Below, piece after piece: positions 4,747-47,232 of a stretch of DNA of 64,000 nucleotides (position 1 is the stretch's first letter; every line of letters starts with the position of its first letter). This DNA comes from Tubiluchus corallicola. Lineage: Eukaryota; Priapulida; Priapulimorpha; Priapulimorphida; Tubiluchidae. A program made the translations under genes and the position numbers. The notes beneath the pieces are model-generated. The model was given only the letters and a program-made list of their open reading frames with translations. It did not search any database and was not told the DNA's origin. Location of the stretch: positions 52,881-116,880 of the forward strand of contig JAQGDQ010000662.1 of NCBI GenBank assembly GCA_030141605.1. The letters run 5' to 3'.

Positions 4747-4762
4747 TCCCTTCTTCACTCGT

Positions 4763-22900: not shown

Positions 22901-25900
22901 CATGTTAATAATATATCTTGACTCATAACTGGGCCGGTCCCGACTGTGTATGTTTTCAGCAAGACTGCAAGTATGTCACTGTGTGAGTCAAGTTGGCAGA
23001 CCGTTTTTTCGGTTTATTTTAAGTGTTTTTCCAGTCTCCTGATGCTTGAATGTTATGTTGAAGTTGTGCAACCATCGACTGCAGCAGAGTTGTGTTATTT
23101 GAGCTCTGAAATTATGGTGCAATAAACGTTATGCCTATTTGACATCCACACATTGGTAAAACAGTGCATACTACGCTTTGTACAGAAGAATTGTTTGTTG
23201 GCAATGCCGTTTGTTAAAAGTACTAAAGGGATTATAGCATCTAGTGAAGGATGCTCTGTGAAGTTGAGATGTATGACCGAAGACGGACGTTTGTATCGAC
23301 ATCCTAACGTAAATGCCTTTCTACTAGTGTTATTTATCAGAGTGTTTTACTCATACGGGATCATTCTAAGGATTTTTTTAGAAATGTATTTAGAAGATGC
23401 ATTTATGATTACTATAGCATTAATCATGCTAACGTAAACACTGTAACATTAATCGTGATGAAGTAAAACATGGTAGCATTAATCATGCTAAAGTAAACAC
23501 TAACATTAATCGTGATGAAGTAAAACACGGTAGCATTAATCATGCTAAAGTAAACACTGCAACATTAATCGTGATGAAGTAAAACATGATAGCATTATCC
23601 ATGCTAAAGTAAACACTGTTGCATTAATCATGCTGAAATAAAACATGGTAGCATTAATCATGCTAAAGTAAACACTGTTGCATTAATCATGCTGAAGTAA
23701 AACATGGTAGCATTAACCATGCTAAACTAAACACTGTTGCATTAATCATGCTGAAGTAAAATATGGAAGCATTAATCATGCTAAAGTAAATACTTAAACA
23801 TAAATCAAACTGAAGTAAATGCTGCAGCATTAATCCTGCTGGAATAAATGATGTAACACTAAGCATGCTAAGACTTAGTTAATGTGTATTATTGCCGGGC
23901 CTTTTTGGTATCATTGCATGTATAGTTTTTAACAGTCTCTCGTAAATCCAAATGAGCGGCTCATTTTACGTGTAATGTCTAATTAATAACGCTTTTATTT
24001 GTACGGTATTTGCGGTGAGACTTAAATGAAATAATAAAATCTGAAAATCTACTATCCAAAAATTTGTCTTTACTTTCAGGAGTACAATACAGACGCGACT
24101 GGCACCGTGTCGTCGAAGAAATACACGAAACTTGGTGCGAGCGGTGCTGTATCCGGCGGCACCACCGGTGAAACGGGAATGCTAACCGCCGAACAACCGA
24201 CATCAGAATCTGCTACGCCGGAAGCGTCGCCCAAACCAACCGATGGAAAAGCTGGAAGGTATGAATTACTTCGAACGTGGTATGAACCCGGGGAGTGAAT
24301 AGAGGAAATATAATGTTTCCTTTTTTGTTAAATGTGTATTGGATGAAATCTGTAGGAACTAAATCTTATTAAACTAATGATATTTTTTCAAAAAGGTCAA
24401 ATGTGATAATTTGCTTTCAGAGAACAAGTTACAAAAATAGCCAAGTTTATTTTACAAGTTACGCACTTTTTCAAACTTCATGTCATTTTTCACTGAGAAA
24501 AGATATTAATCTCATCTACGTTTGTGGACGAGTCACTTCATGTCTTTATGCTTCATATTTATCGTGTTAATCGTTTTCTTTTTTATCATAATTATTTCAT
24601 TTAGGGCGTAGTTTTGATTAAATGTTGTGTTTCTCTGGGGAAGGGAGGGGGAACTGGTTTCTTGCCTACTTTCACTTTCGTTTGCCTTGCTGATGAAATG
24701 ACATCAATCGTAAATGCTTAAATTTTCTTTTTAAACAGTTCTAGCAAACGCATTTCGCATCAGAAACGTAAGAAACGGTCGTCATAGCAATCTGTGTCAA
24801 CTTGACCAATGCCCAGTCTGCACTTTGTTAGAAACTGCAGTTACTGAACAATGTGTGCAGCAAGCTGCCTGTCACGAACACCATGGCAACCTATTGTTCC
24901 AGCTAAGCTGTGGTTTGCTGCTACCTGAAATTTTACACAATTTTTTTACAAATATTATTGTGCACAAAAAAATCCATTATCAACATTTACATTAATAACA
25001 CATTCCAGTTGGATATTTCTTTAGCTATTTGAAGATGTTAGCTGTTTTTGTTTAAGTAGGCAAATAATTTAATTATTTGAGAAAAATCTACCTTCATTTA
25101 CTGTACAAAATAGCATAAAAAAACTTAATAAATTAACTCAAAATGCACAAAGCCCAAGAAAAGATCTTGGCATGTGACCATTACAAGGACCCGTCTTAAT
25201 AGATCCAGTGGCTGTTTTTCCCTGCAAATACTCGGTGTAATAAAATTGATGAATATTGTGTGAAAGCTGAAATTTCTCAATGGCCTGAAAGTTAATCAGG
25301 TGCAACAGTGAAACTTGTAAATGAAGTTTTTTCAGTCGCATGCTCCAACGGAAAGCAAATAAGCCTTTTCACAGATTCATGATGATCGCAAAAAGGCCAA
25401 AGGTTAAGTGTACCAGACACCGCATTTGTGTACACTTGACAACGCCTCGCAGTCCATGCTATTGTAATAATAACAGTTTTAACAGCTAGCTAGCACCCTA
25501 CCTAGTTCATTTTTTCTTGTTCCCAAGCAAGACCGGTTAGTAAAACACTTTACGCACAGACTAAGTAAATAAAATCCACATAAGACAACTCACATTACTG
25601 AATTAACACGGCAGATGGCTTTACTTTACCCACACCTCACATGATGGTTGTAGTTAAGATGCATTGCTGTGGTACACTTAACCTTTTACCTACAGCAACT
25701 GCGCATGCGCACAACATAACTGCGAAAAGGCTTATTCACACCGAATCAAAATTTTGACTTTCAAACTCAAATCAAAGCAAATTTCAAGATTTAAAGCCTG
25801 AATTCAATTTTAGAGATTTTCCAACAGATTTAGCTAAATAGTAATGATTGCACAACGTTTTGAACATTTTATTGTTAAACTGTGTATGCAATTAAGGTAT

Positions 25901-28900
25901 TGAATTAATCAAATCAATTATCTTAGATTTGAAAGAAATTCGAATTAAAAGAAATCGAATTTGATTTGAATGGTCGATGCTCATCCCTGGTCTCCTTTAG
26001 GCAGTCTGAACGTGAGCAACAGTTGTCTCTAGTGTGAACTAGGCATAAGTTGCAGTTCGGCAAAAGTTGTTTTTTTACATGGGCTGCCATTTAGCAAGCT
26101 AACTAATATAGATGGTTGTGGCCAGACTGGGCTCTAGCTCATGATTTGAGCTAACCCTCTAAGATGAGCCACTGAACTGGCCAGTGTTACTTTAGATTTT
26201 TCCAAATCCCTGTGCATCTACCCTCAATGGACTACTGTGGGCAGTATGGCAGATGAAACCATCTAAAAGCAGTATTGTTCGTGGTTGCTCATCCTTTTAC
26301 TGACAAGCCTTGGCTTGCTTAACTTCAGTTCCCGAGCACGCATTATGACCACTGAGCTGTTTGTCTCCTCTTTTTCTGAGTGCGTTAACAATATTATCCT
26401 TTGCTATTTGTTTCATGTATGTGCAAAATGTGCCTTTTTGGCCTATGGCGAAAGGTTTAGTGTTGTTCGTGGGTGAACCATTAACAGCAACATCTGTTTT
26501 ATGTGGGGGAGGAGGGTGAAGGCTCTCAAATAATTACAAAGGTTTTTATTATTTCTGATGCAAAGATGCATTTACTAAAGTTTATCTATTAGCCTTTTTG
26601 TTCCCACGGCTTTCTGCCGTCCAAATGACATCTGTAAAAATGCAGGCTGCAATGGCATTCTAACTGGTAAAGTTGTTGTCTCAAAAGTGTTTCAAGTCAA
26701 GCAATTGTCGATCACTCAGTGTTCAGTTTGTTCCGCAACAGAATCGCAAGCTACTTCCGTCGCAGCCCTCGGACCGCGAAAAAAACGAAAGACGACGAGA
26801 AACTTCTCCAGGAGAGCTACGGAGGCGACTACCTCCCCGATTTGCCACTGCACTTGGAGAAGAAATTTGTACCAAAGAATCCATTTGGCAGCGATTTGAG
26901 CAGCGAGGAGGAAGAGGCGGAGAAAATGACGGTGAAGCCGACGAAGTTTACGCAAATACGCTCCGTTACTGAGATGAAGAAGGAGAGAGCTCCCCAGCCT
27001 CCGTAGTAAATATTTTCTGCCTCTGGCATCTTTTGTCTAACCAGAGTGCAGTGTGTGGCTTAACTAACAGAACATACTGAACAATTCAATAAAATTGGTT
27101 TTGCTTCCTTAAACTTACTGTTTTGTGTCTCAGCTAACAGCATGAAAACTGAAAGAAATAGAGAATTTAAACTCTTTCCTTTGATTAGTTTGCTGCTCAA
27201 TGTCTCGCTTTGTCCATTCTTGTCCACTCTTGACTGGCTCACTGCGATATTTTGACGTTCGGCTGCTTGTGTGCTTTGTTTCATCATTCTGCCGCATTTC
27301 CCGCACTCAGTGCTGTGTAGCACACAGCAGTAGTGTTTAAAAATCCAACATGCTCATGCAAGAGCGGTAGTCTTCGTGGAATGCAGTCCTGTCCTGGCGT
27401 ACGTATAATCATTAGTCTACTACGAACTTGGTTTTTTGAATTTTGTGACTTGCATGGCCAACTAACACAAGTTGCTCTAGCGTGATTTCAATTCGATTCG
27501 AGTTGTGTTTCATTCTTGTAGGACTAGCCGTCAAACGCTTCCTTCTTGCTTGATTGTTTTAGCCTTTAAGGAGCCGCAAAATGATCGAATTTGAAATTGT
27601 GCTTTGAAGCAAAGCACTGTTGAAAGTTGCTTTTCTAACTAACTGCTTGCATTGACTTACTACTAACTGAATGGTTTGAAGCATCTTTAATGTAGTTTGG
27701 AGCAACGATGTACGTCTTCAGACTGTTAACTGTCATGCCAGTTTATTGCAGAAAAACAGTTTACAATTGATTGTTCATTAAAGAAGATGTGCTGTTGGTT
27801 GTTGTTTGGTTTTCTGACGAATTCTTGTTAACGATTCTTGTTGTACGGGGTGGCTCGTTTAAAGCTGCTAGCACCAGGTGGGGGAACTTTTTTAAAAAAT
27901 GTCATAGTAAATCATCAAAACAACTGGTGTAACAAACACGTTTTTTAGAAGAACAAACATAAATTTTTTTGGATGTTGGCTTCCCTATTTGGATAATGTT
28001 TTTTTATTTTTTTGCACAGCAAGTCCTGTATTTTGATGCAAACTCCTGTTTTTAGAACAATACCCGTCACATTTTGGTCAATGAATTTCCTGTTCGAACA
28101 GTGGGCAGTGCCAGTCAGAGACCAATAAGCAAGCGGGTCATCAGCGGACGAGCCACCCCGTTTTTTGTTCACTTTGTTTGCTGTTCGATGTTTTTTTCAT
28201 AATTTCTTTTGATGTTCCTTCACGGTGTTTTTTAATGAAAGTCGTATTACGTCATCAGCCGCACTCAAGTCGTTATTATCGTGACGTGAATTTAAGGTTA
28301 ACGTGTTTTCACAGCAAGAAGATTCAGCAACATCGAGAAGAGTCGCCCGGGAATCCCTTTGCGTCGGACACGGACGAGGAATTCATAGATGCCGAGGATG
28401 ACGAGTAGGTGGCGTCCTCTATAGGCATGAGTTTGTGTTATAAAGTACATTGTTTCACTCCGTTTATTGTTTCACTTCTTTACTTCGGTTTGCACGAACT
28501 GTTATTGTCAGTCATGATACTTTTATAAGCTGCATGATATTGGCAACTTGATCACGTTAAAACACATCGTTGTCAGTGCCTTGCACAATAAACCTTTTCA
28601 CAGCTCCAGCGATTGACGATGATCGTGAAAAGGTCAAAGGGTAAGTGTACCAGACAACTTAAATTTGTACACTTGACAATGCTTCCCAGCCCAGGCTATT
28701 GTATTAGTAACAGTTTTAACAGTTAGCTAGAAACTTACCTAGTTCGTTTTTTCTTGTTCCTTAGCAAGATCCTGCTAGTAAATCACTCTACGTGCAGACT
28801 GATGCATAATTAAGTAAAGTCCACATAAAACAACTGAAGTTACTGAACTGATGCGCCAGAAGTTTTTTTTGTAATAATATATCACGTGACGGTTGTAGTT

Positions 28901-31900
28901 AAGACGCGTTGCTGTGGTACAGTTAATCTTTGACCTACAACAACTGTGTGTGCTCATAGCGAAACTGTGAAAGGGCTTATTGATGATTTGATGTTTCATC
29001 TGTGTCAACGTCACAGTCACTTCAGGAAAACACTTGATGGAATTTTTACTGCCACTCATCACATCACTAACAACACATTTCTAGTTTATTAGCAAGGACT
29101 CTGAGGTTAATGCATGTCACCTCACCAATTGCGATGTCGTTTAGATTGATGCTTTTATCTCTTGAATGTTATATTTCTGATGTGATCGTGTCCCGTGTCT
29201 GAAAATAGAGATGTTAAACCATTCACCATAATGGTACAGTGCTATACTCTTTTCTAACGATACGATAATGATAATCTGTTTTTCACACGATATGATAAAA
29301 TACTTCCGAACGATAAAAACGATACTGTTAGGTGTGGTTAGTTATTGTAACTTATGACAAAGTTGTCTTCTTTGTTTAGTCATAAAACAATATTAATATG
29401 TGAGTTGTGACAGACAAATGTGTTACGTGTACATCTATTACTACATAATACAGTTAACCTCGGATATAAGGGACACCTCCGGACTGACTGAAGATAGCCG
29501 CTATTGCAGGAAGAAAGAACAAGAAGATTATTCGAACTATCTTATAAATAACTCTTTTTTAATTTTTACATAATTCCTGTGCATAAATGAAAAAGCAAAG
29601 TGAAATGATTTTATAATGGTGAGCGATGAGCAGGGATACGTACTAAATTTGATAGACAATGATATTCCTAGAATAATATCAATACGATAACAATAAAAAC
29701 TGATTTTACGTATTGATAACGACCATCAATAATGATCAATAACATCCCTATTTGAAAATGTTAGCTGGTTTTCGTGTACTGGATGTGTTGCGTACAATTT
29801 CTTGGAAAACAAAACCCGCACCTTGCCTAGTTTGTGTTTCGCTCACTAGAGGTCAGTTTGCATTTACAGCCTATTGATATATAACTTGATACAGTGTCTT
29901 GTTAAAATACGCATTTCTTGGGATACACTATGCGTTTCTTTGGGTACACTACGCATTTCTTGGGGTACACTACGCGTTTCTTGGGGTGCACTACGCATTT
30001 CTTGGGGTACACTACGCATTTCTTGGGGTGCACTACGCATTTCTTGGGGTACACTACGTATTTCTTGGTATGCACTATGCGTTTCTTGGGATACACTATG
30101 CGTTTCTTGGGGTGCACTACGCATTTCTTGGGGTACACTACGCGTTTCTTGGGATACACTACGTGTTTCTTGGGATACACTACGCGTTTCTTGGGGTACA
30201 CTACGCGTTTCTTGGGATACACTACGCGTTTCTTGGGATACACTACGCATTTCTTGGGATACACTACGCATTTCTTGGGGTGCACTACACGTTTCTTGGG
30301 GTACACTACGCGTTTCTTGGGGTACACTACGAGTTTCTTGGGGTACACTACGCGTTTCTTTGGGTGCACTACGCATTTCTTGGGGTGCACTACGCATTTC
30401 TTGGGGTGCACTACGAGTTTCTTGGAGTACACTACGCGTTTCTTGGGGTACACTACGCGTTTCTTGGGATACACTACGTGTTTCTTGGGATACACTACGC
30501 GTTTCTTGGGATACACTACGCATTTCTTGGGGTGCACTACGCGCTTCTTGGGGTACACTACGCGTTTGTTGGGGTACACTATGCGTTTCTTTGGGTGCAC
30601 TACACATTTCTTGGGGTGCACTACGCATTTCTTGGATACACTACGTGTTTCTTGGGATACACTATGCATTTCTTGGGGTACACTACGCGTTTCTTGGGGT
30701 ACACTACGAGTTTCTTGGACTACACTACGCGTTTCTTTGGGTGCACTACACATTTCTTGGGGTGCACTACACATTTCTTGGGATACACTACGCGTTTCTT
30801 TGGGTGCACTACGCGTTTCTTGGGGTACACTACGCGTTTCTTGGGATACACTACGTGTTTCTTGGGGTACACTACGTGTTTCTTGGGATACACTACGCGT
30901 TTCTTGGGGTATGCTACGCGTTTCTTTGGGTGCACTACGCGTTTCTTGGGGTACACTACGCGTTTCTTGGGATACACTACGTGTTTCTTTGGGTGCACTA
31001 CGCATTTCTTGGGGTACACTACGCGTTTCTTGGGGTACACTATGCATTTCTTGGGGTGCACTACACGTTTCTTGGGGTACACTACGTGTTTCTTTGGGTG
31101 CACTACGCGTTTCTTGGGGTACACTACGTGTTTCTTGGGATACACTACGTGTTTCGTTGGGTGCACTACGCGTTTCTTGGGGTACACTACGCATTTCTTG
31201 GGGTACACTACGCATTTCTTGGGGTACACTACGCATTTCTTGGGGTACACTACGCGTTTCTTGGGGTACACTACTCGTTTCTTGGGGTACACTACGTGTT
31301 TCTTGGGACACACTACAAGAAAATTGGAACTTCTCATGGCACGTTAGCATAAAATTTAACGTTTTTACTATTTCATTTTATTTGTGCTGTGGAGATGTGA
31401 GCTGTCACGACTAGAATAGAATGACTGCATAAAAAATTCAACCTCCGCCAGGACTTGAACCTGGGGCTTCCCGCATACAGTGCACGTGCAGTACGGAGCC
31501 ACCATGGATGAAATCCCAGGCCAAATTCTGCAAGAGGGTTAAAAATTACCATCGTCACATTTTAGAAATAAGCATGAGTGTTTGTGTATCAGGTTACTGA
31601 ATCGCGTTATCTATGACCTTGAGATCATAGATACAAAATTACAGTAAACGCTTTGCATAGTGACAGCAGAATGCCATTTAGGTTGTGTCTGCTCAATGTC
31701 TCACAGGTGCACAAATAATTCACACACTGACTGTTAAATATAATTGATTGATGTCTGATGTGTTGAATTGCGTCAGATGAGGAAAGCCACATCTTTCACT
31801 TAATGCCTCTCTCTTATCTCTTACGATGCCCTATTTGTTTTCTCCGAGCAGTTTAGTGTAAGGTGAAAAATTGTTAAAGAATTTAAAATTGCACATTTTA

Positions 31901-34900
31901 AATTTAAAAAGTTAGAAACGTAGTTAGACTGCCATTAACGGTTTTTTGTTCGTTTGAAGATTTGAACATTAAACTTCTTAGGAAGTTGCAGGGTCCCTTT
32001 GCATTTTACCCTTTTCACTGTCGTAGCTCTTGTCACTGCTACAATTATTACCACAACTGTTAGAAAATGCTTTTGCTACAAACATGACTGGCTTATAGCT
32101 GCCTCGATGTGTCTTATTTTGTGTTAAATGTTACTTAATGCTACATTTATCTGGATAATGCATTTTGTGCATTTTTAAGTGGTGCTATCATTTCAAAATA
32201 TAGTTTTCAAAGAGCATTGGGGGTCTAAATCATGCCAATCAAAGCAACATACTCAAAGTAGCTAGCATGAGTCGTATGTCTCTGATCATAATGGTAATGA
32301 GTTTTTTCATAAAGCACAAGAAAGGCCTTTTCATACATTAAACTGAAAATAATCGGAGCATTCGTAGCGCCATCTTCACTCACTAAGCAAAAATATAAAT
32401 TGCTTTGTACTGTCAGTGAGATTAAAAATACGTTTTTTGGTGAGTCAGTGGTGCACTCTGGGAAGGTGAGTCAGTGACATTTTACCAGTTGGTGCAATTA
32501 TATTATTTTAAATGATTAAGAATATTCTTTTCAAATTACATAAGGCTTTTTAGCAGGTAACCATCATTTTAAATAATATAACTTTCTAACATTAAACTGA
32601 ATTGAATTGAAGTTGAATTGAATTCTATACCAAGTTTTTTTGGGACATACTTTTAAATAGCCTTTTCTTCCCCTTTAAGAATTAGCTGTTGTCTGCTGTT
32701 TTGCTACACGTACCAACATGTGAGGTAATATAGTTTATTTGTATTGGTAAATGAGATGATTATAGATAACAAGCGATGACAAGCATGAGCTTCGCGAAGC
32801 TGTGCTGAGGTTTTACGTTGCTGCGTTGCCGTTGCCGCGTCGTTACTATTCAGAGATTATTTTTAAAGTTGCAGCTTTTTGTTCTACTGTCGTGCGCTGG
32901 GGGTAGACATAATCGTTGTCGCCATTGTTCTATCTTTGGCAGCTCCCGCGTATTGATCTGTGTGTTAGTACTCGAAAACTGGGCAGAAACGTGCTTTTAT
33001 CACAGAGAGAGAAGCCAGCCAGCTAGATTGTAGCAGTTTTTCTACCTCGTTGATGAACAGGCACAGCTTCTAGAGTGTCTCTGCCCCGCAGGTGTGCGTG
33101 AAAGGTGTGCTTTCGTGGAAACGTGATCCACCTGCCCGCATGCTGCGTTAAGTCAGTGACGTCATCATGGGGTTCATTTGAAGTACAGATTCACTATTTC
33201 TTGTAGAATCAAAACTAGCTCTGGTGCGATATTCTGTGATATAACAGCTTCTTTGTTTGTATGATATGCTTTAATCCTTCATTGTAGGATATTCTATGAC
33301 TAACATTGTTCTATCATTCGACAAGATGTGGAAATAAATATTGTGATATTTTGCTTGATGTCACAAACATTCTCAGGCCGAGTTACAAACTGCTTACTGA
33401 ATTTAAACGTCTTTAAAGATTTTCAAATAATCTTTACAATTTATATGTGAAAAGATTTCTAATTGTCTGAGGTGATCTTTTCTATTTTGTTTCGTAAAAC
33501 AACAAAGATGCATCACATTGCTAGCTTAGAAGCGGTACTTTGAAAACACGTTGAGCGTGATTATATGACCGTTCTATATTTGACTACGTACGTAATCTAC
33601 TTACGTACGATAATTTCTTCGTTGAAACGTAGACACGGATTCCAATCTTTGTCGTTGGATTTATGCTGATAACAGGGATTCGACTTGTAATCTGAAGATC
33701 GAGTAATTTCTGAAGATTCATTTGCGTGAAGCTTTGTCTAGCGTCTAGCAACGGATTCTTGGAGATTGCTTGCGATTGGAGATTAGTCTGTGTTCGAAAT
33801 TCTCACATTTTTCCATCTCAAAATTACGAGGTTATTAGTTGTATTAGCAGACTTGAACGTAATGCAGTGGATAAGTACAGCGAATTGAAGGGGCCAGATG
33901 CATAATTATCTTGTAGATGGTGACACAGCGGACAGTTTCTTGGTGCAACTTCATTTGCTTTTGTACGTTTGAATGCAGCACCATCTAGTGCAACAAGTTG
34001 TACACTTTTGTCACAGCACTTCACTTTAAACTTTATCTTGACAGTATAAGATCTGTGAGTCTTATTAGCGTGCTTTGATTGCCTTCCGGGTGATGTTACA
34101 GTTGTGATCCGACAAACTCTTAACTTGTTGAACGCACAGCAGTTTTTCTTGTTGTTGCCGTTGCCATTGATGGCCATTGTTGTTTTTCTTGGTTACATTT
34201 AAATTTCTTATCTAACCGTACGGCGTTACCAGGCAACCGGGTAAACATGTAGCAACTTGCTGTGTTTTTAACCGCATGGATGTCCTCTTGGTTGAGATTC
34301 ATATGTCTGTGTTTTAGTGGTTGTTGTCTGCCACAGAAGAGCAACAGAGTTGGTACTGCTTACCACGGTGGCACCACTACTGCCCGTCACCCCCCAGACA
34401 TAATGCTGACACCTGCCACGCCTGCACCAGCTAGTATTTCGCGCAGTGGTTCACCAACTGCACCCACCGCACCACCAGCATCATCGAACAGGTACGCAAT
34501 GTAAGTGTGTTGTTTTTTGGCTGATGCACCACTTTATTTACTTGTGTTTCACTACCTACTGTTGTGCAGCAATTTACATTTTAGTTTAATATCTTTCTGC
34601 GCTATCAATTATTTTATCGTGCATCGTTACTGCAGTGCAGTAACAATGCACTGTAACGTTTGGCCTGTAACAGTGCAGATCAGTTTTTTCCATTCTACTG
34701 TTTGTGTGCAGTTGTTTGGCTCATTTGCTGTGTCACACTGTCTTGATGTTTAGCCTGCATTGTTACTGCAGTACTGTAACAATATACTACAAAGTCTGGC
34801 CTGGTACAGTGCAGGTCAGTTTTTTCGATGGTTCTCTACTGACTCCATGCCGTTGTTTGGTTCACTTGCTTTGTCATACTGTACTGATTTTTTGTCGTGC

Positions 34901-37900: not shown

Positions 37901-40900
37901 GACATTTTCTGGTGATCAGGTATACAATACATGTACTTTGCATTAATTTGTGCTGAAACCAGTCTTTAATTACCAGTATACAGGTATATTTGATTACAGG
38001 TGTACCCAAACAAGATGATTAGTTTACCTGAGTAGTAGTTTATGCAGGTGTATTACCTAGGCTGAGCATTGTGATCACTCTGCTGCTTAGTATATTGAAC
38101 TGTCACTTTATACTGGTGGATGTTAACATAATTTTTCTTGTTCAGAAGTTAAATGTACATTAGTTTGCAGTGTTCCGCATTTTTATGTCAATTAATTATT
38201 TACACGTTGTTTATGTAAATTTATGTTATTTACATAATTAATGTTAAGGTTTTTATCAGTGGTCAGGCACAAACCTGCAATCAATTAAATTTTGACACCA
38301 AAATGTTGGAATACATCCTGGATTTGAACAGGTACCTTCTGCTTACAGGGCAGGTCTGTTAGGTCATTGCCTTTCCCCCGGGGAATAGGGCAGACAAAAG
38401 CTCATCGCTAATAGCTGGGCAAATGCCATCCGAAAAAATAATCATAATAAAATAAATTGATCTAATTTGTTAGCATCACTCTAGTGTGAGTGATCTAGCG
38501 TTGGATAGGCTGAATTTTCGACGGCCTTGGTCACTGGGAATGTAGCGGTCAAAAATGTCTGCCTAGTAGGCAGAAGATCCATAGTAAGGTCAAGAACAAG
38601 CGAGAATCTGTGTCAGTTGTTCGAAGAAACGCCTTTTTCTAGTTTCCAGTGGTGGGCACTTAGAGCATTTGCTGTAAATATTAACAATACCGACAAAGTT
38701 TTTTCCGTATTTATTTTTTGATTTGTTGCATTAGAACTTTGTATCTTTGGAAAAGTCTACACGAATGGCTTTTAATTTTTAGTGCTTTTACAAAAACGTC
38801 TGTAACATCAGTGTTGCAACTTTCGTGATCAAAACTTCAGCAGTTTTTTGCACCACCTGATATATGCACTTACACACATTTTTTCTGGACGTTTTGCTGA
38901 TAAAACAGGTATATTTGATTACAGGTGTACCTGAAACAAGATGATTAGTTTACCTGAGTAGTAGTTTATGCAGGTGTATTACCTAGGCTGAGCATTGTGA
39001 TCACTGTACTGCTAAGTATTGAACAGTCACTTTATACTGGTGGATGTTAACATAATTTCTTGTTCAGAAGTTAAATGTACATTTATGTAAATTTATGTTA
39101 TTTACATAATTAATTAATGTTAAGGTTTTTATCAGCGATCAGGCACAAACCTGCAAATCAGAGAAGCCAGTTCTCTGCATTCTCTGCTTCAGCCATAAAA
39201 CAAAAAGCTTTTCACTGTGTTGTTAAACACGTTAATATTGCGTGTTTTTCTCCAGTGGGAGTAGCTTATAGGTTTCGTGTTTAATGTGGTCATATTTGAT
39301 TGAAGTGTGTGCACTTTGCCTCTTGCTGCTTCATCAAGTTTAAGCTCGCCCTGTTGCACAAACACCATGGATTCCTGTTTAATGGACCGTGCAGTCAATT
39401 TCAAAGAGCAAATCATTTCTAATTTTAACGGGTCTTTCTGCGTTTTAGTTCACGGCTCAGTGAACAATGCCGTGCTGACGTCACTGCTGAAACGACAGAG
39501 TGAAAAATGTTAGATTTGTTCTTGATTATGACCTTGGAATGTTGCTTGCAGTTTTTCTGGGAGTTTTCCTTTATTCCATGGTTCTCCTACTGTGTGGCAT
39601 CAGTTTTTTTCTGTGATCATGTGCTTTTTGTGTAGTGTTTTTAATCTGCCATTGTGCCACATGGCTTCTTTGTGTAATCTTTTGAATCTGCCATTGTGCC
39701 ACATGACTTCTTTGTGTAGTATTTTTAATCTGCCATTGTGCAACATGACTTCTTCGTGTAGTATTTTTATATGCCATTGTGCCACATGCTCTTTGTGTAG
39801 TCTTTTGAATCTGTCATTGTGCCACATGACTTCTTTGTGTAGTATTTTTATTCTGCCATTGTGCCACATGACTTCTTTGTGTAGTATTTTTAATCTGCCA
39901 TTGTGCCACATGACTTCTTTGTGTAGTATTTTTATATGCCATTGTGCCACATGCTCTTTGTGTAGTCTTTTGAATCTGTCATTGTGCCACATGACTTCTT
40001 TGTGTAGTATTTTTAATCTGCCATTGTGCCACATGACTTCTTTGTGTAGTATTTTTATATGCCATTGTGCCACATGCTCTTTGTGTAGTCTTTTGAATCT
40101 GTCATTGTGCCACATGACTTCTTTGTGTAGTATTTTTATATGCCATTGTGCCACACGACTTCTTTGTGTAGTATTTTGAATCTGCCATTGTGCCACATGA
40201 CTTCTTTGTGTAATCTTTTTAATCTGCCATTGTGCCACATGACTTCTTTATGTAGTCTTTTGAATCTGTCATTGTGCCACATGACTTCCTTGTGTAGTAT
40301 TTTTAATCTGCCATTGTGCCACATGACTTCTTTGTGTAGTATTTTTATATGCCATTGTGCCACATGCTCTTTGTGTAGTCTTTTGAATCTGTCATTGTGC
40401 CACATGACTTCTTTGTGTAGTATTTTTAATCTGCCATTGTGCCACATGACTTCTTTGTATAGTATTTTTATATGCCATTGTGCCACATGCTCTTTGTGTA
40501 GTCTTTTGAATCTGTCATTGTGCCACATGACTTCTTTGTGTAGTATTTTTATATGCCATTGTGCCACATGACTTCTTTGTGTAGTATTTTGAATCTGCCA
40601 TTGTGCCACATGACTTCTTTGTGTAATCTTTTTAATCTGCCATTGTGCCACATGACTTCTTTATGTAGTCTTGAACCTGCCATTGCATCACGTGATTTCT
40701 TTGTGTAGCTTTGGACTTCTCTTCGTAGCACATGCCTTCTTTTATGCTCTCCAATCAAACATGATGTCATGTAGTTTATTTGTATAATTTTTTATTTGCC
40801 TTTTTGTGTAATTCAGTAAGTTGGCTTTGGCTTCTATGAAAACAGAGACATATAATGTCCGTCATGAATTCCTTTATTTAACTTTATTTTAACATTCTAA

Positions 40901-43505: not shown

Positions 43506-43537
<32 letters not shown>

Positions 43538-46500
43538 GTATGTATATTTATGTATATATATCTGCAATCAACGATAGAATTGTTTGTTTTCTTTCAACTC
43601 GTATATATATTTTGACCCACTTATAGGTCGCCTTATTGCATACAGAGCTTGCGTTAGCAGTAACTCTATATAAAAGTTACAAATTTAACCGCTCACAATG
43701 ACCGTTAGGTGCAGCCATTTTAACATCAGTCATTTGAAACAAGTTTAGGTAACATTGTGTAAAGTTTGAAAAGATAATCAGAGCATTCGTAACACACTCT
43801 TTCTTAATTAAGCAAAAGTTCAAATTACTTTTTTGTCAATAAGATCAATAATGTGTTGTTGTTTTTTTGGTGACTCAGTGATGCACACTGGGATGGTAAT
43901 TCAGTGCAGTTTTACCAGGTGGCACGAACATTTTAAATTATTAAGAATTTTCTTTTCCAATTACATAATTCTTTCAAACAAGGCAAGTGTAATGCTAAGT
44001 AATGTAACTTTGTATGGAGAGCTCTCTGAGGTATACTCTGAAATTCTTTTTCCAACATTGAAAACTTTCGAATGTTTTCTTACTTGTGTGTGTGTGTGTG
44101 TGTGTGCGTGCATGGCTATTTCAGCGATCAAATTGTTTAATTTAGTTAATGGTGCTTGTATGCAACGCTGTGTGCTATGCTGTTCTAACTAAACTTGTCT
44201 TACAACATTGTTATGTTAACCACATTGTATTATTATGGTATTTACAGTGTAATTTAGTGCTGTTAAGCCTCCTCTAAGGACTAATGCTGTTACTAATAGT
44301 CTTGTAAATATTTGAAACTTGTTACACAGTGTTTTATTCGCGTCATATTGATTAACCATGTCTTATGACGTTGTTACTCAGAATTTTAATGCTGTAGCCC
44401 CATCCCATGAGAGAAATTCTGTTAATCTATTTGTGAAGCTGAAAATGATCTTTTTTATTGTAATTTTGTCTTGCAATGCTGCTAAACTTCATAATGTAAA
44501 CTTTGTTGTATTTTATTCGGTTATTGATCTTATCACGTTGTGATGCTAACCTACCCTTTTGCACTGTCACGCCAGTTGTATCGTGCTATAGTGCTGCTGT
44601 TACCCCGTTTTATGTTCCATTATTTACACATTCGATAAATCTAATGTCGTCTTCTATCATTGACATTGTCAGTGTAAAACCTGCATCAATACTCACAAAG
44701 TATCTCGCACATCACGCGCATTTGTAAGGCAGATTTGAGAAAAGTTTTCATTTTCTGTTGCAGCTCGCAACAAAAGGCGAAGCCGTCGTCGAATCCGTTC
44801 GGTGATGACGAAAACTTTGACGACGCGACAGAGGGCGTACGCGTCCGGGCGCTCTACGGCTATAATGGCTCAGAAGAAGATGAACTTACTTTCAAAGAAG
44901 GTACTAAATTCATTGCGTGTAAGAAGAACATGAAAATATATCTCTTAAATACATATTAGGTGGATTTGGCCTTTAGCTTGTCATTCCATACTGCATATAC
45001 CGCACTGGTTACCATTCACAGTCCGTACAAAACATACTTATTATGCTATAGCCATTTCATTGCATTTTCATCATTGTCACTTCATAATTTGTTTCCATTT
45101 TTTACAATTTTTCGCATTTTTCTCTTCTACTTACACCCTAATTTTACCATCATGTCATTCCTTTCATTGCTCATTTCTTTTATTCTGCGCCTAAGACCTA
45201 ACAACACACCATGCATTACAGATGGGCTTTCCAGGTCCTAGCTTTTAGCTCGATTGCAATCAATTGCCTATCATTTGTTTCTTATTGCTCAAATGATAAG
45301 TATTTATAGTAATTTTGTTAAGTACTTATAGTAATTTTGTTTTCAGCATATGCCATTGTATGTAATATATCTGTGTGTGTAATTGTTATAGTGTTTTTGT
45401 CTGATAAACAGTAAACAACAATGAACAATTGCAGTTTTCAGTTCTTTTCTGTATTAGTATTAAACGATGAGACTGTTTGCTCGCTGCAGAATAAGCGTTT
45501 CTCTGGATAACATTCCCCGTTACCCGCATGGCTACCCGTAGTTTTGACTATTTTCACAAGTCTCCCAAAAACTGCTCAAATCTTCAACATTTTCATACAT
45601 CTTAATACAGTCAAGTTTGTGTAAAGTTTCAATAATGAATACTAGATCACTTTTTTTATTGGCAAGCAAGGACATTTTCACTGATGCTGACATTTTTCAG
45701 TGACTTCAAGTAGACACTTTTCCTTTAACTGGTCGCTAAACGCTAGCAGTCTGCACTGCAGTTATTTCTAAATGCTGAGTGCTGCTTTTATACATTCATT
45801 TTCTTCCTCTGGGCTTCTTATCTGCAGAATTGTTTAATGCCTATTGGCTGCCACATCATTTACCTTCAGAAAAATGGTAACAAGTACCTACATTCACTAA
45901 TAAATTAGTTAACTTCAGCTTTTCTGTACCTGTGCACATATGTCCATCTTTCTACTGAAGTGGTCACTTACTCTGAGTTAGCCTTGCTTGTAGTCCATTT
46001 ATGTAAAAATAATTATTTCACATGTTTGCAGTGGGCCGATTAATCGATTTAATGGATCGCAGTCACTTTGGGCATTGATTTTTAATCATCACTGTAAATC
46101 AGTTGTGTTGTCATTATGGTGTTCAACTTATTTTTCCAAAAAGCGAGAAAAATTGTCAAATGAATCTAGCGTCACTGCGACACTACCTTTGTGCCATGAC
46201 TTGGCAGACTGCATTGCTGCTTAGATACAAAGGTTTCTCGCAATGAAATGTACAGTGATCCCTTGCTACTTCGCGGTTCGTTTATCGCGGACTCGCTGTT
46301 TCGCGGGTTTTCAAAAATATTAATGTAAAATATTGATCTCGGTATTTTCGCTGTTTCGTGGATTTTTGCCGTAGTCCGTCTAAAGTATTTTTGCACATTG
46401 TAGTACGTATTGTACAGTAATGTAGAGATTTGATGAATTTTGCATAAAAATCACAAAATGTATAAAAATATATTAAAAATATTAACTGTAACATTAAAAG

Positions 46501-47232
46501 AATATTATAAATCATAAAAAATTACCATTTACAGTAAATAGTGTATTTATTCAGCGGATGAATACACACCAATAACGAAATGTAGTACTTGCGCCCGCTT
46601 GAGATGCTACTTGCTGACGTCAGATTGTGCACAACACACGATTATGTATAAGAGTGTTGGGAGGGTTTATAAAGACTTAAAATAATGTATAACTACTAAA
46701 ATAAGTATAGCGTCCCTACTTTGCAGAAATTCACTTATCGCGGGTGGGCCTGGAACGGAACACCCACGATAAGTGAGGGAGCGCTGTACAGTACTAAAAC
46801 ATCTAAAAGGCTAACTCTTTAATCACGGTGGATTATGCGGGTGTCTTTAATTCTATGGTATCTTCACTTCATGATTGTTTCAGCAAAACAACAGCCTATT
46901 AGCCTTCTCAATACTTTAGTAGTGTGTCAGTTCATCCGTTTTTCATAAGCAGCAAAACCCGCAGTTTCCGTGTGTGTATCTTTTTCTTAAAACAGCCTAT
47001 AAATCGATTGCTATTGTATCCGATTAATCGATTGTGAAAATGTAACCAATGTATCGCTGCTAGTGTATGCAGTTGTGCATGAATAAGACCTTGAAATAAC
47101 CGATTGATATATTGCAATGCAGGTGATGAGTTTTTAAAACTAGAAGATGAGGACGAGCAAGGTTGGTGTAAAGGCAAAATAGGCGACACTATCGGACTGT
47201 ACCCTAGTGGATATGTCGATGAACTACACTGA
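10685..47232 (+). CDS. PACSIN: PACSIN/syndapin F-BAR and SH3 protein (whole gene)
   Basis: Exons 10685-10913, 11631-11734, 13175-13282, 14433-14570, 15893-16018, 17897-17997, 19022-19142, 24080-24258, 44764-44900 and 47123-47232 join without a phase conflict into 450 residues plus stop, within the family range. Residues 1-309 form the F-BAR domain ([16 protein letters not shown]-like [12 protein letters not shown]-like [27 protein letters not shown]); then a Ser/Thr/Ala/Pro linker, NPFGDD and a carboxy-terminal SH3. Family role: it bends and tubulates membranes in endocytosis and links dynamin, N-WASP and EHD proteins. A cassette exon (34318-34491) would give 508 residues; two alternative last exons would give 456 or 399 residues without SH3. 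Introns run from 0.7 to 20.5 kb. Confidence 0.93.
11631..11734 (+). CDS. PACSIN: PACSIN exon 2 (F-BAR)
   Basis: Acceptor TTCCCTGCAG, donor [25 protein letters not shown] corresponds to the family's YGTLEKAW segment. Phase: one base comes from exon 1 and the exon ends on a whole codon. Confidence 0.93.
11990..12050 (+). repeat. tRNA-derived SINE-like fragment
   Basis: TAGTGGTCACGGAGTTAGC resembles an A box with D-arm, and GGTTGAAATTC a degenerate B box 35 bases on. Not a functional tRNA. Confidence 0.45.
12681..13133. mobile_element. TTAA-type MITE, full copy
   Basis: Begins TTAAAGCAAAAGAACTC and ends CCCTTTTCTTTCCTTTAA, a degenerate inverted pair of the ends seen elsewhere (TTAAAGG...GAAAA and its complement), flanked by TTAA. 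Interior blocks such as AGTTTGAAAAGATAATC and GTCAATAAGATCA recur in the other copies. The TTAA target suggests mobilisation by a piggyBac-type transposase, which is inference. Confidence 0.65.
13175..13282 (+). CDS. PACSIN: PACSIN exon 3 (F-BAR wedge-loop region)
   Basis: 36 codons, symmetric phase 0, acceptor TTCACTCAG and donor GTTAGTG. It aligns with the part of the F-BAR holding the membrane-inserting wedge loop in vertebrate PACSINs; here the loop reads KQTIPKPF, with Ile, Pro and Phe as possible inserting residues. That assignment is inference. Confidence 0.9.
13283..14432 (+). other. PACSIN intron 3, nothing recognised
   Basis: No repeat or alternative exon is evident. Confidence 0.4.
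14433..14570 (+). CDS. PACSIN: PACSIN exon 4 (F-BAR)
   Basis: 46 codons in phase 0. [17 protein letters not shown] matches the hallmark KAQKPWAKKLKEVE of the family. Donor GTAAGAC is followed within 16 bases by a run of 16 G residues. Confidence 0.93.
14586..14601 (+). repeat. G16 homopolymer beside exon 4 donor
   Basis: Sixteen consecutive G residues begin 16 bases into intron 4. Intronic G-runs near donors can act as splicing enhancers; the length may also be a sequencing estimate. Confidence 0.8.
14662..15270. mobile_element. pogo/Tigger-like MITE, copy 1
   Basis: Ends CAGTGTTCCCTC and GAGGGAACACTG are inverted repeats flanked by TA on both sides (14660-14661, 15271-15272). Both subterminal regions carry the CGCGAAGTAG/CGATAAGTG type motifs characteristic of pogo-Tigger ends. 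No transposase frame is present. Confidence 0.82.
15893..16018 (+). CDS. PACSIN: PACSIN exon 5 (F-BAR)
   Basis: 42 codons, acceptor TTTATACAG, donor [26 protein letters not shown] and KYIDDMQL match the family's KLQDKVEK...YMENMEQ segment. A second acceptor three bases on (ACAGAG) would drop one residue. Confidence 0.9.
16019..17030 (+). other. PACSIN intron 5, left part
   Basis: AT-rich, with no gene or recognised repeat. Confidence 0.4.
17030..17675. repeat. dispersed repeat, copy 1 of a ~0.6-kb family
   Basis: Matches 24740-25345 in the same orientation. Shared strings include CCATGGCAACCTATTGTTC, ATTCCAGTTGGATATTT and TCATTTACTGTACAAAA. No terminal repeats or coding capacity were recognised. 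Open frames here differ between copies and are not conserved. Confidence 0.7.
17897..17997 (+). CDS. PACSIN: PACSIN exon 6 (F-BAR)
   Basis: Acceptor TTTGTTTCAG, donor GTAACTG; ends after two bases of a codon. [18 protein letters not shown] matches the family's VFEQCQQFEEKRLRFFRE. Confidence 0.94.
18285..18327. repeat. short inverted repeat
   Basis: ACGAAGTCCGTCT (18285-18297) and AGACAGACTTCGT (18315-18327) pair with one mismatch across a 17-base loop. No transposon context was recognised. Confidence 0.6.
19022..19142 (+). CDS. PACSIN: PACSIN exon 7 (end of F-BAR)
   Basis: Acceptor ATTTTCCAG, donor [27 protein letters not shown] matches the family's DLRWFRxxxGPGMAMNWPQF that closes the F-BAR. 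Confidence 0.95.
19679..20088. mobile_element. hAT-like MITE rich in TTCGAA
   Basis: The left end TTAGGGGTGAGCA and the right end (CTAAGGGTGACCA read inward) are near-matching inverted repeats. Subterminal parts are dense in TTCGAA/GAATCGAAT motifs. Flanks GCGTTGAT and GCGTGACC match only partly, so the target duplication is weak. A degenerate relative of its end occurs at 25738-25992. Confidence 0.55.
20505..21512. repeat. minisatellite, ~95-bp unit, about 11 copies
   Basis: Each unit contains TCTCATCC, AGAATTTGATTTCC, TTAAAG(A/G)GAAGAAAAAGGAATC and GTATACAATCATC. Neighbouring units are more alike (CCCCGCG early, CCTCCAT/CCTCCACG later), as expected from local expansion. Lies in PACSIN intron 7. 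Confidence 0.9.
22271..22622. repeat. 176-bp tandem duplication
   Basis: Two copies start at GAGTTC 22271 and 22447; both hold TTACAAATAAAAGTCTTA and GACAAGTTTTTCAAGCTTT. Confidence 0.85.
23402..23878. repeat. minisatellite of alternating ~29-bp units
   Basis: GCATTAATCATGCTAAAGTA alternates with GCATTAATC(A/G)TG(C/A)TGAAGTA to form dimers of about 58 bp, repeated about eight times and decaying at the right. Confidence 0.88.
24080..24258 (+). CDS. PACSIN: PACSIN exon 8 (linker)
   Basis: 59 codons plus two bases; acceptor TACTTTCAG, donor GTATGAA. Starts [18 protein letters not shown] and becomes Gly/Thr/Ser/Ala/Pro-rich and disordered. It ends on AG, so any downstream exon must supply one base first; four downstream exons do. 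Confidence 0.9.
24740..25345. repeat. dispersed repeat, copy 2 of a ~0.6-kb family
   Basis: Direct-orientation relative of 17030-17675. It ends 15 bp before a TA-type MITE. Confidence 0.7.
25362..25732. mobile_element. TA-type MITE (AGCCTTTTCGCAG family), copy A
   Basis: AGCCTTTTCACAG at the left and its inverted form CTGCGAAAAGGCT at the right, flanked by TA on each side. About 371 bp. The interior contains CAAAGGTTAAGTGTACCAGAC and TTCATTTTTTCTTGTTC, shared with four other copies. No transposase. Confidence 0.82.
25738..25992. mobile_element. degenerate hAT-like MITE end
   Basis: The right end GATGCTCATCCCT mirrors the GGGTGAGCAT end of the element at 19679-20088, and the interior has the same AATCGAATTTGA-type motifs. 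The left end is lost against the neighbouring MITE. Confidence 0.4.
26742..27006 (+). CDS. PACSIN: PACSIN candidate alternative last exon A (NPF, no SH3)
   Basis: Acceptor GTTCCGCAACAG joins exon 8 in phase (AG+A). 88 residues follow, basic at first ([16 protein letters not shown]), then [16 protein letters not shown], ending ERAPQPP with tandem stops TAG TAA. AATAAA lies at 27088-27093, 82 bases on. The product would be 456 residues with one EHD-binding-type NPF motif and no SH3. A second acceptor at 26719 (CACTCAG) would enter another open frame lacking NPF. Transcript support is needed. Confidence 0.68.
27088..27093 (+). terminator. poly(A) signal for PACSIN exon A
   Basis: Canonical AATAAA 82 bases after the stop of the alternative last exon. 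Confidence 0.5.
28315..28408 (+). CDS. PACSIN: PACSIN candidate alternative last exon B (NPF, no SH3)
   Basis: Acceptor GTGTTTTCACAG joins exon 8 in phase (AG+C). It encodes [18 protein letters not shown], then acidic [11 protein letters not shown] and TAG. The product would be 399 residues ending just after an NPF-acidic module that resembles [12 protein letters not shown] of the SH3 exon. No usable in-frame donor is seen before the stop, so it reads as terminal. Confidence 0.68.
28587..28592 (+). terminator. possible poly(A) signal inside a MITE end
   Basis: AATAAA about 180 bases after the stop of exon B. It spans the junction of this MITE copy, where the family's AATAAGCC reads AATAAACC. 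Confidence 0.35.
28591..28977. mobile_element. TA-type MITE (AGCCTTTTCGCAG family), copy B
   Basis: Left end AACCTTTTCACAG, right end CTGTGAAAGGGCT, TA on both sides, and the same interior as copy A (GATCGTGAAAAGGTCAAAG, GGTTGTAGTTAAGACGCG). Confidence 0.8.
29207..29751. mobile_element. hAT-like MITE rich in GATA/ATCGAT-type motifs
   Basis: The left end AGAGATGTTA is matched by the right end (ATAGGGATGTTA inward). Flanks CTGAAAAT and TTGAAAAT form an 8-bp duplication with one difference. The interior has many GATACGATAA motifs. Confidence 0.6.
29903..31312. repeat. 21-bp minisatellite, about 67 units
   Basis: The unit is TTTCTTGGGGTACACTACGC plus one base, with variants GGGATAC, TGGGTGC and GGGGTGC and CGC/CAC/TGC changes. 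One unit near 30628-30648 has lost a G, shifting the phase of everything to the right. Because 21 is divisible by three and the unit lacks stops in most frames, frames of up to about 490 codons run through it on both strands; these are not taken as genes. Lies in a PACSIN intron. Confidence 0.95.
31437..31508 (-). repeat. tRNA-derived SINE-like fragment (Thr-like)
   Basis: Minus strand: TGGCTCCGTACTGCACG (A-box region), an anticodon region with CTGTA, and CCAGG-TTCAAGT-CCTGG, a perfect 5-bp T arm. The acceptor stem does not pair, so not a working tRNA. Confidence 0.6.
31514..32330 (+). other. PACSIN intron, nothing recognised
   Basis: AT-rich without a coding or repeat signature. Confidence 0.4.
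32335..32678. mobile_element. TTAA-type MITE, left-truncated copy
   Basis: Shares AATAATCGGAGCATTCGTAG, GGTGAGTCAGTGG and the right end CTTTTCTTCCCCTTTAA with the family. Confidence 0.6.
32679..34317 (+). other. PACSIN intron with a more GC-rich patch
   Basis: About 32.8-33.2 kb is less AT-rich than its surroundings and holds a perfect TGACGTCA at 33157-33164 (CRE-type site). No exon could be fitted to PACSIN here. A promoter or enhancer role is only a possibility. Confidence 0.3.
34318..34491 (+). CDS. PACSIN: PACSIN candidate cassette exon (Pro/Thr/Ser-rich linker)
   Basis: With acceptor CTGTGTTTTAG and donor GTACGCAA the exon is 174 bases, starts and ends in the same phase as exon 8, and adds 58 residues (HHGG-like [16 protein letters not shown], then [19 protein letters not shown]). 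A stronger-looking acceptor at 34336 (TCTGCCACAG) opens the same reading frame but would not fit exon 8's phase. The composition suits a disordered linker before the NPF/SH3 part. Confidence 0.6.
34620..35130. repeat. tandem repeat, ~140-bp unit, nearly 4 copies
   Basis: Starts of GTT(A/G)CTGCAG at 34626, 34762, 34904 and 35044. Each unit has CAGTTTTTTCCATTGTTCT and TTTGGTTCA(C/G)TTGC motifs. Confidence 0.85.
35251..35665. repeat. minisatellite, ~33-bp unit, about 12 copies
   Basis: Unit CCTTTGCTCAAGCTTGCAGG plus TTTTGTAAGCTATT, diverged between copies. The 116-codon frame here is a repeat artefact. Confidence 0.88.
36044..36411. mobile_element. TA-type MITE (AGCCTTTTCGCAG family), copy C
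   Basis: AGCCTTTTCGCAG and CTGAAAAGGCT ends with TA on each side, 368 bp, with an interior colinear with copies A and B. Confidence 0.82.
36470..36530 (-). repeat. tRNA-derived SINE-like fragment
   Basis: Minus strand: GCCACTCGAGGAAGTC region followed by TCTGGTTCAAATCCAG, a clear B box within a T-arm-like hairpin. Confidence 0.5.
36621..37740. repeat. 22-bp minisatellite inside a ~0.53-kb duplication
   Basis: The basic unit is TTATTCACTTATACTCTTGC plus TG. The whole block, including a unique lead-in (ATTTATTCTTTCATTCATC, TACAATGGTTGCGAGAATTC), is present twice, offset by 543 bp at the start and 521 bp at the end. Confidence 0.9.
37981..38280. repeat. direct duplication, left copy
   Basis: CAGGTATATTTGATTACAGG onwards repeats 925 bp to the right at 38906-39160, including GCAGGTGTATTACCTAGGC and TTATACTGGTGGATGTTAAC. 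Confidence 0.88.
38303..38372 (-). repeat. tRNA-Thr-like SINE fragment
   Basis: Minus strand: CTGCCCTGTAAGCAG forms an anticodon-arm-like hairpin with TGT in the anticodon position (Thr), followed by CCTGTTCAAATCCAGG as T arm. Confidence 0.6.
38538..38595 (+). repeat. tRNA-Thr-like SINE fragment
   Basis: Plus strand: TAGCGGTC..., then CTGCCTAGTAGGCAG, an anticodon-arm hairpin with AGT (Thr). The B box is degraded. It lies opposite in strand to the neighbouring fragment at 38303-38372. Confidence 0.5.
38906..39160. repeat. direct duplication, right copy
   Basis: Second copy of 37981-38280, with small deletions. Confidence 0.88.
39630..40690. repeat. higher-order satellite: 42/39/42-bp units in ~123-bp cycles
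   Basis: Three variants of a unit containing CCATTGTGCCACATG: A with TAGTATTTTTAATCTG, B shortened with TTTTTATATGCC and CATGCTCTTTG, C with TAGTCTTTTGAATCTGTC. They recur mainly as A-B-C. All lengths divide by three, which creates frames of up to about 210 codons on both strands. Part of a PACSIN intron. Confidence 0.92.
40700..41800 (+). other. PACSIN intron, nothing recognised
   Basis: No repeat or alternative exon recognised. Confidence 0.4.
41800..42170 (-). pseudogene. possible C2H2 zinc-finger relic
   Basis: On the minus strand two overlapping frames carry finger-like pieces: one reads [17 protein letters not shown], the other [19 protein letters not shown] with the H-x3-H, TxKER linker and C-x2-C layout of tandem C2H2 fingers. 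They are in different frames, so at least one frameshift separates them, and the second His of the first finger is lost. It lies inside a PACSIN intron in antisense. It could be chance. Confidence 0.35.
42200..43470 (+). other. PACSIN intron, nothing recognised
   Basis: AT-rich, with a short (AT)n near 42920 only. Confidence 0.4.
43480..43565. repeat. TA/TATG microsatellite
   Basis: Runs of TATATATA interrupted by TATGTATG. Confidence 0.85.
43620..44065. mobile_element. TTAA-type MITE, copy with degraded ends
   Basis: Contains TGACCGTTAGGTGCAGCC, AAGTTTGAAAAGATAATC and GTCAATAAGATCAATAATG in family order. The terminal TTAAAGG/CCTTTAA motifs are not intact. Confidence 0.6.
44085..44108. repeat. 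TG microsatellite
   Basis: About eleven TG units ending TGCGTGCATG. Confidence 0.8.
44764..44900 (+). CDS. PACSIN: PACSIN exon 10 (NPF and SH3 start)
   Basis: Acceptor TTCTGTTGCAG joins exon 8 or the cassette exon in phase. It encodes [19 protein letters not shown], then [19 protein letters not shown], the first strand and RT loop of the SH3 (family VRVRALYDY). Donor GTACTAA after one base of a codon. Confidence 0.93.
46253..46786. mobile_element. pogo/Tigger-like MITE, copy 2
   Basis: Ends CAGTGATCCCTTGCTACTTC and GAGGGAGCGCTG with flanking TA. It is in the opposite orientation to copy 1 at 14662-15270 and 75 bp shorter. Confidence 0.8.
47123..47232 (+). CDS. PACSIN: PACSIN exon 11 (SH3 end and stop)
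   Basis: Acceptor ATTGCAATGCAG. It encodes [20 protein letters not shown] and [13 protein letters not shown], then TGA. The conserved Trp of the binding groove is kept. The usual Asn of the YPxNY motif is Gly here (YPSGY), which could alter ligand binding. ATTAAA at 47650 is a possible poly(A) signal. Confidence 0.93.

What the first reader, a model, noticed from the sequence alone, without database searches (positions are those of the whole stretch)
24080..47232. Modular PACSIN 3' end: three separate exons each carrying an NPF-acidic module, two of them terminal
Exon 8 ends two bases into a codon. Four later exons (26742, 28315, 34318, 44764) each begin with the one base needed, and all four routes give a length divisible by three. 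Three of them encode NPFGSD, NPFASD and NPFGDD followed by acidic residues; two of these then stop with no SH3. If real, the gene makes EHD-binding PACSINs with no SH3 partner domain as well as the normal form. In vertebrates several NPF motifs sit in one linker together with the SH3, so splitting them into mutually exclusive ends would be a different way to uncouple F-BAR membrane bending from dynamin/N-WASP recruitment. Duplication of an ancestral NPF exon is the likely origin.
Basis: partly seen in the sequence, partly recalled or inferred. Interest (0 to 1): 0.72.

Follow-up and report, generated by a model that had tools for sequence, protein, structure and literature searches.

The report
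PACSIN gene with extra NPF exons
An animal PACSIN (syndapin) gene carries two extra exons with EHD-binding NPF motifs; one looks like a private last exon that would make a PACSIN without its SH3 domain, while the other is at least as likely an ordinary optional internal exon of the kind already known in human PACSIN2.

Summary
The exons are probably real; reading both as terminal is not secure. The rebuilt gene (10 core exons, 450 aa) is a PACSIN: with exon 28315 added it matches human PACSIN2 at E 1e-98. Between exon 8 and the SH3 exon, the stretches at 26742 and 28315 score far above unrelated ones as coding, and NPF followed by acid arose in 0 of 400 shuffles. Exon 28315 ends CGA|GTAGGT, the same six intronic bases and preceding A as a clathrin exon here; it is 90 nt and symmetric, so probably a cassette adding a second NPF to the SH3 form, as human PACSIN2 exon 9 does. 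Exon 26742 differs: its would-be donor scores below all 41 reference donors, it ends TAG TAA, and AATAAA follows 82 nt later. It is probably an alternative last exon giving an SH3-less PACSIN. No transcript or related animal genome was available. Exon 34318 is indistinguishable from chance.

The parts
10685..19142 (+). PACSIN core exons 1-7 (10685-10913, 11631-11734, 13175-13282, 14433-14570, 15893-16018, 17897-17997, 19022-19142): F-BAR domain
   Evidence: gene model; FCH Pfam 1.7e-18; human PACSIN2 E 1.2e-98 for the 480-aa form
17897..17997 (+). exon 6, internal exon whose phase-2 donor ACG|GTAACT reads as a stop (DPR*): internal control
24080..24258 (+). exon 8, start of linker, ends in phase 2, donor AAG|GTATGA
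26742..27006 (+). exon 9a: NPFGSD+acid module, stop TAG at 27004-27006 followed directly by TAA; proposed alternative last exon (alternative acceptor 26766)
   Evidence: coding scan 49.7-53.4 (an overlapping wrong frame scores 46.2); as a donor the end scores below all 41 reference donors
27088..27093 (+). AATAAA 82 nt after the 9a stop; a GU-rich stretch (TGTTTTGTGT) begins 31 nt further on
28315..28404 (+). exon 9b: NPFASD+acid module; 90 nt, phase 2 to 2; proposed cassette exon (or terminal to 28408)
28405..28410 (+). GTAGGT: splice donor of 9b if internal; reads as TAG stop if not
   Evidence: same six bases as a clathrin heavy chain donor
34318..34491 (+). candidate exon 9c (Pro/Thr-rich, no NPF); strong donor but coding content not above chance
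44764..44900 (+). exon 10: NPFGDD+acid module followed by first part of SH3
47123..47232 (+). exon 11: rest of SH3, stop TGA 47230-47232

Best explanation
This is a metazoan PACSIN/syndapin gene whose linker region holds two optional NPF-acidic exons between exon 8 and the NPF-SH3 exon (exon 10). Exon 9b (28315-28404) is a symmetric phase-2 cassette: its inclusion gives a 480-aa PACSIN with two NPF motifs and an SH3, its skipping gives the 450-aa form with one. Exon 9a (26742-27006) is an alternative last exon with its own poly(A) site: its use gives a 456-aa PACSIN with F-BAR and one NPF-acidic module but no SH3. Such a form should still bend membrane and bind EHD proteins, could not recruit dynamin or N-WASP through SH3, and would escape the SH3/F-BAR autoinhibition described for PACSINs. 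Shown: exon positions, phases, coding-like content, donor strengths, presence of EHD-like genes. Inferred: that the exons are spliced as described, polyadenylation at 27088, and all functional consequences.
For: The 480-aa spliced protein matches human PACSIN2 over residues 12-478. 9a and 9b stand out in a scan of the intron for coding stretches, have 52-53% GC against 36% around them, and score best in the claimed frame by codon use. Donor test with 41 reference donors of this genome (17 PACSIN, 24 clathrin): 9a TCC|GTAGTA below all 41, local sequence favours a stop over a donor about 4400:1; 9b CGA|GTAGGT within range (2 of 41 lower; 3 of 17 lower with PACSIN donors only), stop over donor 7.6:1. 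Clathrin exon donor GAA|GTAGGT, phase 2, also reads as TAG. 4 of 6 reference phase-2 donors read as stops, among them window exon 6 and paralog exon 8. AATAAA begins 82 nt after the 9a stop; 94 of 1130 stop triplets (8.3%) in the region have one that near. Two loci with the DUF5600 family (EHD helical domain, recalled) and an EH-like frame are present. Human PACSIN2 exon 9 carries NPF1 and is skipped in an isoform (PMC11177969, passages); long and short PACSIN2 differ in NPF number, and SH3 binding to F-BAR autoinhibits (PMC9285741, passages).
Against: No transcript data. No related animal could be compared; the one scan I ran (genome contigs, bacteria and archaea) gave none. Local sequence at the end of 9b favours a stop 7.6:1, and its donor is among the weakest; my preference for a cassette rests on the clathrin precedent, on PACSIN2 exon 9 and on the lack of a good poly(A) site. 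In the coding scan a wrong frame overlapping 9a scores nearly as high (46.2 against 49.7). The 9a acceptor is mediocre (14% of AGs in the window score as high). Its GU-rich element ranks first of 67 AATAAA sites only by a measure I chose after seeing the sequence; by the recalled YGTGTTYY consensus it matches 7 of 8, and 9 of 67 AATAAA sites (itself included) and about a quarter of positions sampled in the region reach that. The paralog lacks both exons, so they are not fixed in both copies.
Confidence: 0.5

Rival explanations
1. One reading: both 9a and 9b are terminal exons, so the gene has three mutually exclusive NPF-bearing 3' ends, two of them without SH3.
For: In-frame stops directly after the coding-like stretches; local sequence at the end of 9b favours a stop over a donor 7.6:1; TATAAA 31 nt and AATAAA 179 nt after the 9b stop.
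Against: Its TAG is what donor GTAGGT would read, and the same donor with the same preceding A is used in clathrin here; length 90 and symmetric phases fit a cassette, though both follow automatically from a G before an in-frame stop; neither poly(A) candidate has a GU-rich follow-up by my measure.
Confidence: 0.22
2. Both are cassette exons: 9a and 9b can be spliced in any combination and every isoform keeps the SH3, as in vertebrate PACSIN2.
For: Both stretches end at a GT with length divisible by three (261 and 90) and the joins tested are open. GTAGTA is used as a donor by a clathrin exon with CAG before it.
Against: 9a's TCC|GTAGTA has C at -2 and -1 and T at +5; no donor of 41 has C at -1, and the four without G at -1 all have G at +5. 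Tandem TAG TAA and AATAAA follow.
Confidence: 0.1
3. One or both are coding-like leftovers or exons used so rarely that they make no protein of note (for example nonsense-mediated decay substrates).
For: Mediocre acceptors; absent from the paralog; a wrong frame over 9a scores nearly as well; no expression evidence.
Against: Frames open over 87 and 30 codons with the gene's codon use; NPF followed by acid in both (0 of 400 shuffles).
Confidence: 0.18

Closest known systems
Vertebrate PACSIN2 (syndapin II) long and short forms: exon 9, NPF1 cassette
   Same: An optional exon carrying an NPF motif between the F-BAR end and the NPF-SH3 part; same place in the protein as 9b (inferred from the alignment). 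PDB 3haj (human PACSIN2) holds an NPFEDEDD stretch that PDB 4bne (a PACSIN2, species not shown) lacks, both with SH3.
Drosophila Syndapin
   Same: F-BAR, linker with an NPF, SH3 (PMC2780292, PMC3758542, passages), like the 450-aa form here.
   Different: No extra NPF exon or natural SH3-less form is mentioned in the passages seen; the SH3 deletions there were engineered.
The paralogous PACSIN of the same genome (G000:C544, minus strand)
   Same: Exon 8 starts in phase 0 and ends in phase 2; NPF and acid inside the SH3 exon.
   Different: No counterpart of 9a or 9b: a single NPF in the 17.8 kb read, sense strand. It also lacks the intron between exons 2 and 3.

Membership tests
PACSIN/syndapin | N-terminal F-BAR domain of PACSIN type | tested here: met
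   FCH 1.7e-18; PACSIN1/2/3 and Syndapin F-BAR structures are the top hits
PACSIN/syndapin | C-terminal SH3 | tested here: met
   SH3_1 1e-12, encoded by exons 10-11; absent from the predicted 9a form
PACSIN/syndapin | NPF motif(s) with acidic context in the linker (PACSIN1/2 type) | tested here: met
   EHD/RME-1 EH domains prefer NPF followed by acid (PMC3570524 passage)
PACSIN2 exon-9-type NPF cassette (exon 9b) | in-frame exon with NPF between the F-BAR end and the NPF-SH3 exon | tested here: met
   90 nt, phase 2 to 2
PACSIN2 exon-9-type NPF cassette (exon 9b) | usable splice donor at its end | tested here: inconclusive
   weak but within the range of 41 donors; same donor used in clathrin
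PACSIN2 exon-9-type NPF cassette (exon 9b) | included and skipped in mRNA | not testable with these tools
   no transcripts
Alternative last exon (exon 9a) | no credible donor, in-frame stop | tested here: met
   end scores below all 41 donors; TAG TAA
Alternative last exon (exon 9a) | poly(A) signal | tested here: inconclusive
   AATAAA at +82 (8.3% by chance); downstream element not clearly special
Alternative last exon (exon 9a) | polyadenylated transcripts joined to exon 8 | not testable with these tools
   no transcripts

The most novel reading that the evidence does not exclude
Both 9a and 9b are private last exons, so one PACSIN gene makes three mutually exclusive ends, each with its own NPF-acidic module, two of them freed from SH3 and therefore from both dynamin/N-WASP recruitment and SH3/F-BAR autoinhibition: constitutively open, EHD-coupled membrane benders made by choice of 3' end.
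Probability: 0.22. Interest if true: 0.62.

Novelty: new variant of a known kind. Interest (0 to 1): 0.42.

Why it matters
Optional NPF exons in PACSIN are known, but a naturally SH3-less, NPF-bearing PACSIN made by an alternative last exon did not turn up in my searches (an open-licence library only) and is not among human PACSIN2 coding isoforms according to PMC11310779 (passage). If 9a is used, it is a natural separation-of-function form that could test whether EHD coupling and membrane bending need SH3 partners at all. The finding also shows a general trap: 23 of 41 reference donors would read as an immediate stop if they stood in phase 2, so such exons easily look terminal.

Tried and rejected
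Looked for a haplotig, retrocopy or related exon of 9a and 9b in the same genome: only the window itself (DNA; 9a protein). Searched the 480-aa spliced protein: 28 matches, which are the window gene exon by exon, one PACSIN paralog on C544, and SH3-part matches on other contigs; no spliced retrocopy among them. No Pfam match for the 9a, 9b or 9c peptides; one chance hit for 9a among solved structures, E 3.6. COX1 search to read the mitochondrial code and so the clade: nothing found; the species remains unknown. Genome-contig scan for relatives: none confirmed; viral contigs was not scanned. Internal donor 26932 in 9a (ACG|GTGAAG, phase 0, could in principle reach a phase-0 acceptor at 34337): no donor of 41 scores lower (2 of 17 do with the smaller set), and coding-like sequence runs on past it, so not preferred. 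Exon duplication: 9a/9b local score reached by 1 of 500 shuffles, 9b/exon 10 by 2 of 500, 9a/exon 10 by 41 of 500; the match is the NPF-acid motif, so selection for the motif explains it as well as duplication. ORF length of 9a alone: 282 of 400 shuffles had an open phase-2 stretch of at least 87 codons. Divisibility of 261 and 90 by three is not independent evidence for cassettes: it follows from a G before an in-frame stop. Passages of PMC6899846 and PMC8110786 gave background only.

Full report
What was checked. The window lies in a 343.5-Mb assembly of 2344 contigs, by its gene content an animal; the species is unknown. I rebuilt the gene from the sequence: exons 1-8, 10 and 11 give a 450-residue protein. 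With exon 9b added (480 aa) it matches human PACSIN2 (PDB 3haj) over residues 12-478 at E 1.2e-98. Pfam finds FCH and SH3 in the 450-aa form.

Are 9a and 9b real coding sequence? Probably. One search scored phase-2 stretches from every AG with acceptor score of at least -3 between 24259 and 44763, ending at a stop or at a donor scoring above -2, with the codon use of this gene and its paralog. 9a scores 49.7 (53.4 from the alternative acceptor 26766), exon 10 45.8 with its donor at 44900, and 9b 28.7 as terminal and 28.0 as internal; the best stretch not overlapping these scores 13.6, and 9c scores 10.4, not above chance. Against this: an overlapping stretch in another frame (26720-26972) scores 46.2, so for 9a the score shows coding-like composition more than the frame. 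By a simpler codon score the claimed frame is the best of three for both (9a 0.46 against -0.13 and 0.26 per codon; 9b 0.67 against -0.28 and -0.19). GC is 52.5% and 53.3% against 36% in the surrounding intron. NPF followed by at least 5 acidic residues in 15, in a phase-2 frame after YAG, occurs twice; 0 of 400 dinucleotide shuffles of the intron (tandem arrays left out) gave even one, and none occurred in 26 kb of other + strand or on the minus strand of the window. ORF length alone is not significant: 282 of 400 shuffles had an open phase-2 stretch of at least 87 codons.

The trap. A phase-2 exon that ends at a donor beginning GTAA, GTAG or GTGA always reads as nnG-stop if followed into the intron. 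This happens at internal exons here: window exon 6 (DPR*, ACG|GTAACT), exon 8 of the paralog (QPPV*, AGT|GTGAGT), and two clathrin heavy chain exons (GAA|GTAGGT and CAG|GTAATC). In all, 4 of the 6 phase-2 donors in my reference set read as stops, and 23 of 41 donors of any phase would if they were phase 2. So an in-frame stop directly after a phase-2 exon says little.

Telling the two apart. The reference set is 17 donors of the two PACSIN genes, placed by eye, and 24 clathrin joins placed by script with a guide sequence recalled from memory. The script returned a join for 24 of 25 neighbouring pairs of 26 aligned blocks; the other pair was dropped because its blocks overlapped too far on the guide, and some blocks merge two exons, so those introns are not in the set. 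The joins were not checked one by one. Exon 9b would end CGA|GTAGGT: weak, but 2 of 41 reference donors score lower by leave-one-out (3 of 17 with PACSIN donors alone), and the clathrin exon at L007:8364 uses the same six intronic bases with the same preceding A in the same phase. Local sequence favours a stop over a donor 7.6:1. Exon 9a would end TCC|GTAGTA: below all 41, with the stop favoured about 4400:1. These ratios use a position-weight model with recalled human-like pseudocounts, so they are rough. After the 9a stop comes TAA at once and AATAAA at +82; 94 of 1130 stop triplets in the region have AATAAA that near. A GU-rich decamer follows that ranks first of 67 AATAAA sites by a measure I made after seeing it; by the recalled textbook consensus it matches 7 of 8 letters, and 9 of 67 AATAAA sites (itself included) and about a quarter of positions sampled in the region reach that. 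After 9b there is TATAAA at +31 and AATAAA at +179, neither with a GU-rich follow-up by my measure. After the normal stop of the gene, of the four signals sought, only the variants AGTAAA and ATTAAA occur within 900 nt, so signal quality is an uncertain guide here.

Relatives. The paralog on C544 (234 identical of 471 alignment columns) keeps the exon 8 phases and the NPF-acid-SH3 exon but lacks the intron between exons 2 and 3, and has a single NPF on the sense strand of the 17.8 kb read. So 9a and 9b belong to this copy alone, or were lost from the other. Two loci match the DUF5600 family (the EHD helical domain, recalled) and carry an EH-like C-terminal frame (recognised from memory), so a partner probably exists. 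No related animal could be read: genome contigs, the one collection scanned, holds bacteria and archaea.

Comparison with the known. Human PACSIN2 exon 9 maps to NPF1 and is skipped in an isoform (PMC11177969, a preprint, passages); [quoted passage not shown] The review PMC9285741 (passages) says that long and short PACSIN2 differ in NPF number and that SH3 binding to the F-BAR domain autoinhibits. EHD EH domains prefer NPF followed by acid (PMC3570524, passage). Searches for an SH3-lacking isoform or an alternative last exon of PACSIN listed 8, 2 and 0 papers. I saw passages of three of these ten (PMC9285741, PMC2780292, PMC11310779); the SH3-lacking proteins there were engineered. Of the other seven I saw only titles and abstract openings.

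Verdict. 9b is best read as the counterpart, in place and kind, of the PACSIN2 NPF cassette; 9a as an alternative last exon that would make a 456-residue SH3-less PACSIN with an EHD-binding module. Everything about use of these exons is inference until transcripts are seen.

Noticed in passing
window 29753-31420: Intronic array with a 21-bp period (67 in-register copies found) between 9b and 9c, open in several frames (HYAFLGV-like repeats); other tandem arrays at about 36600-37700 and 39500-40700.
   Followed up: no
window 4739-8100: Two adjacent long frames (462 and 673 aa) upstream of the gene that look by eye like a LINE-type element; not searched.
   Followed up: no
window 25374-25736, 28611-28981, 36064-36388: Copies of one dispersed repeat (70-84% alike) lying in the introns around 9a, 9b and 9c.
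   Followed up: no
G000:C246, C1187, C514: Clathrin heavy-chain-like matches on three contigs, and three 872-codon uninterrupted clathrin-repeat frames with identical scores on C1787, C2138 and C2264.
   Followed up: no
G000:C544:89242-105096: Second PACSIN gene with one NPF; its exon 8 also reads as a false stop at the donor.
   Followed up: yes
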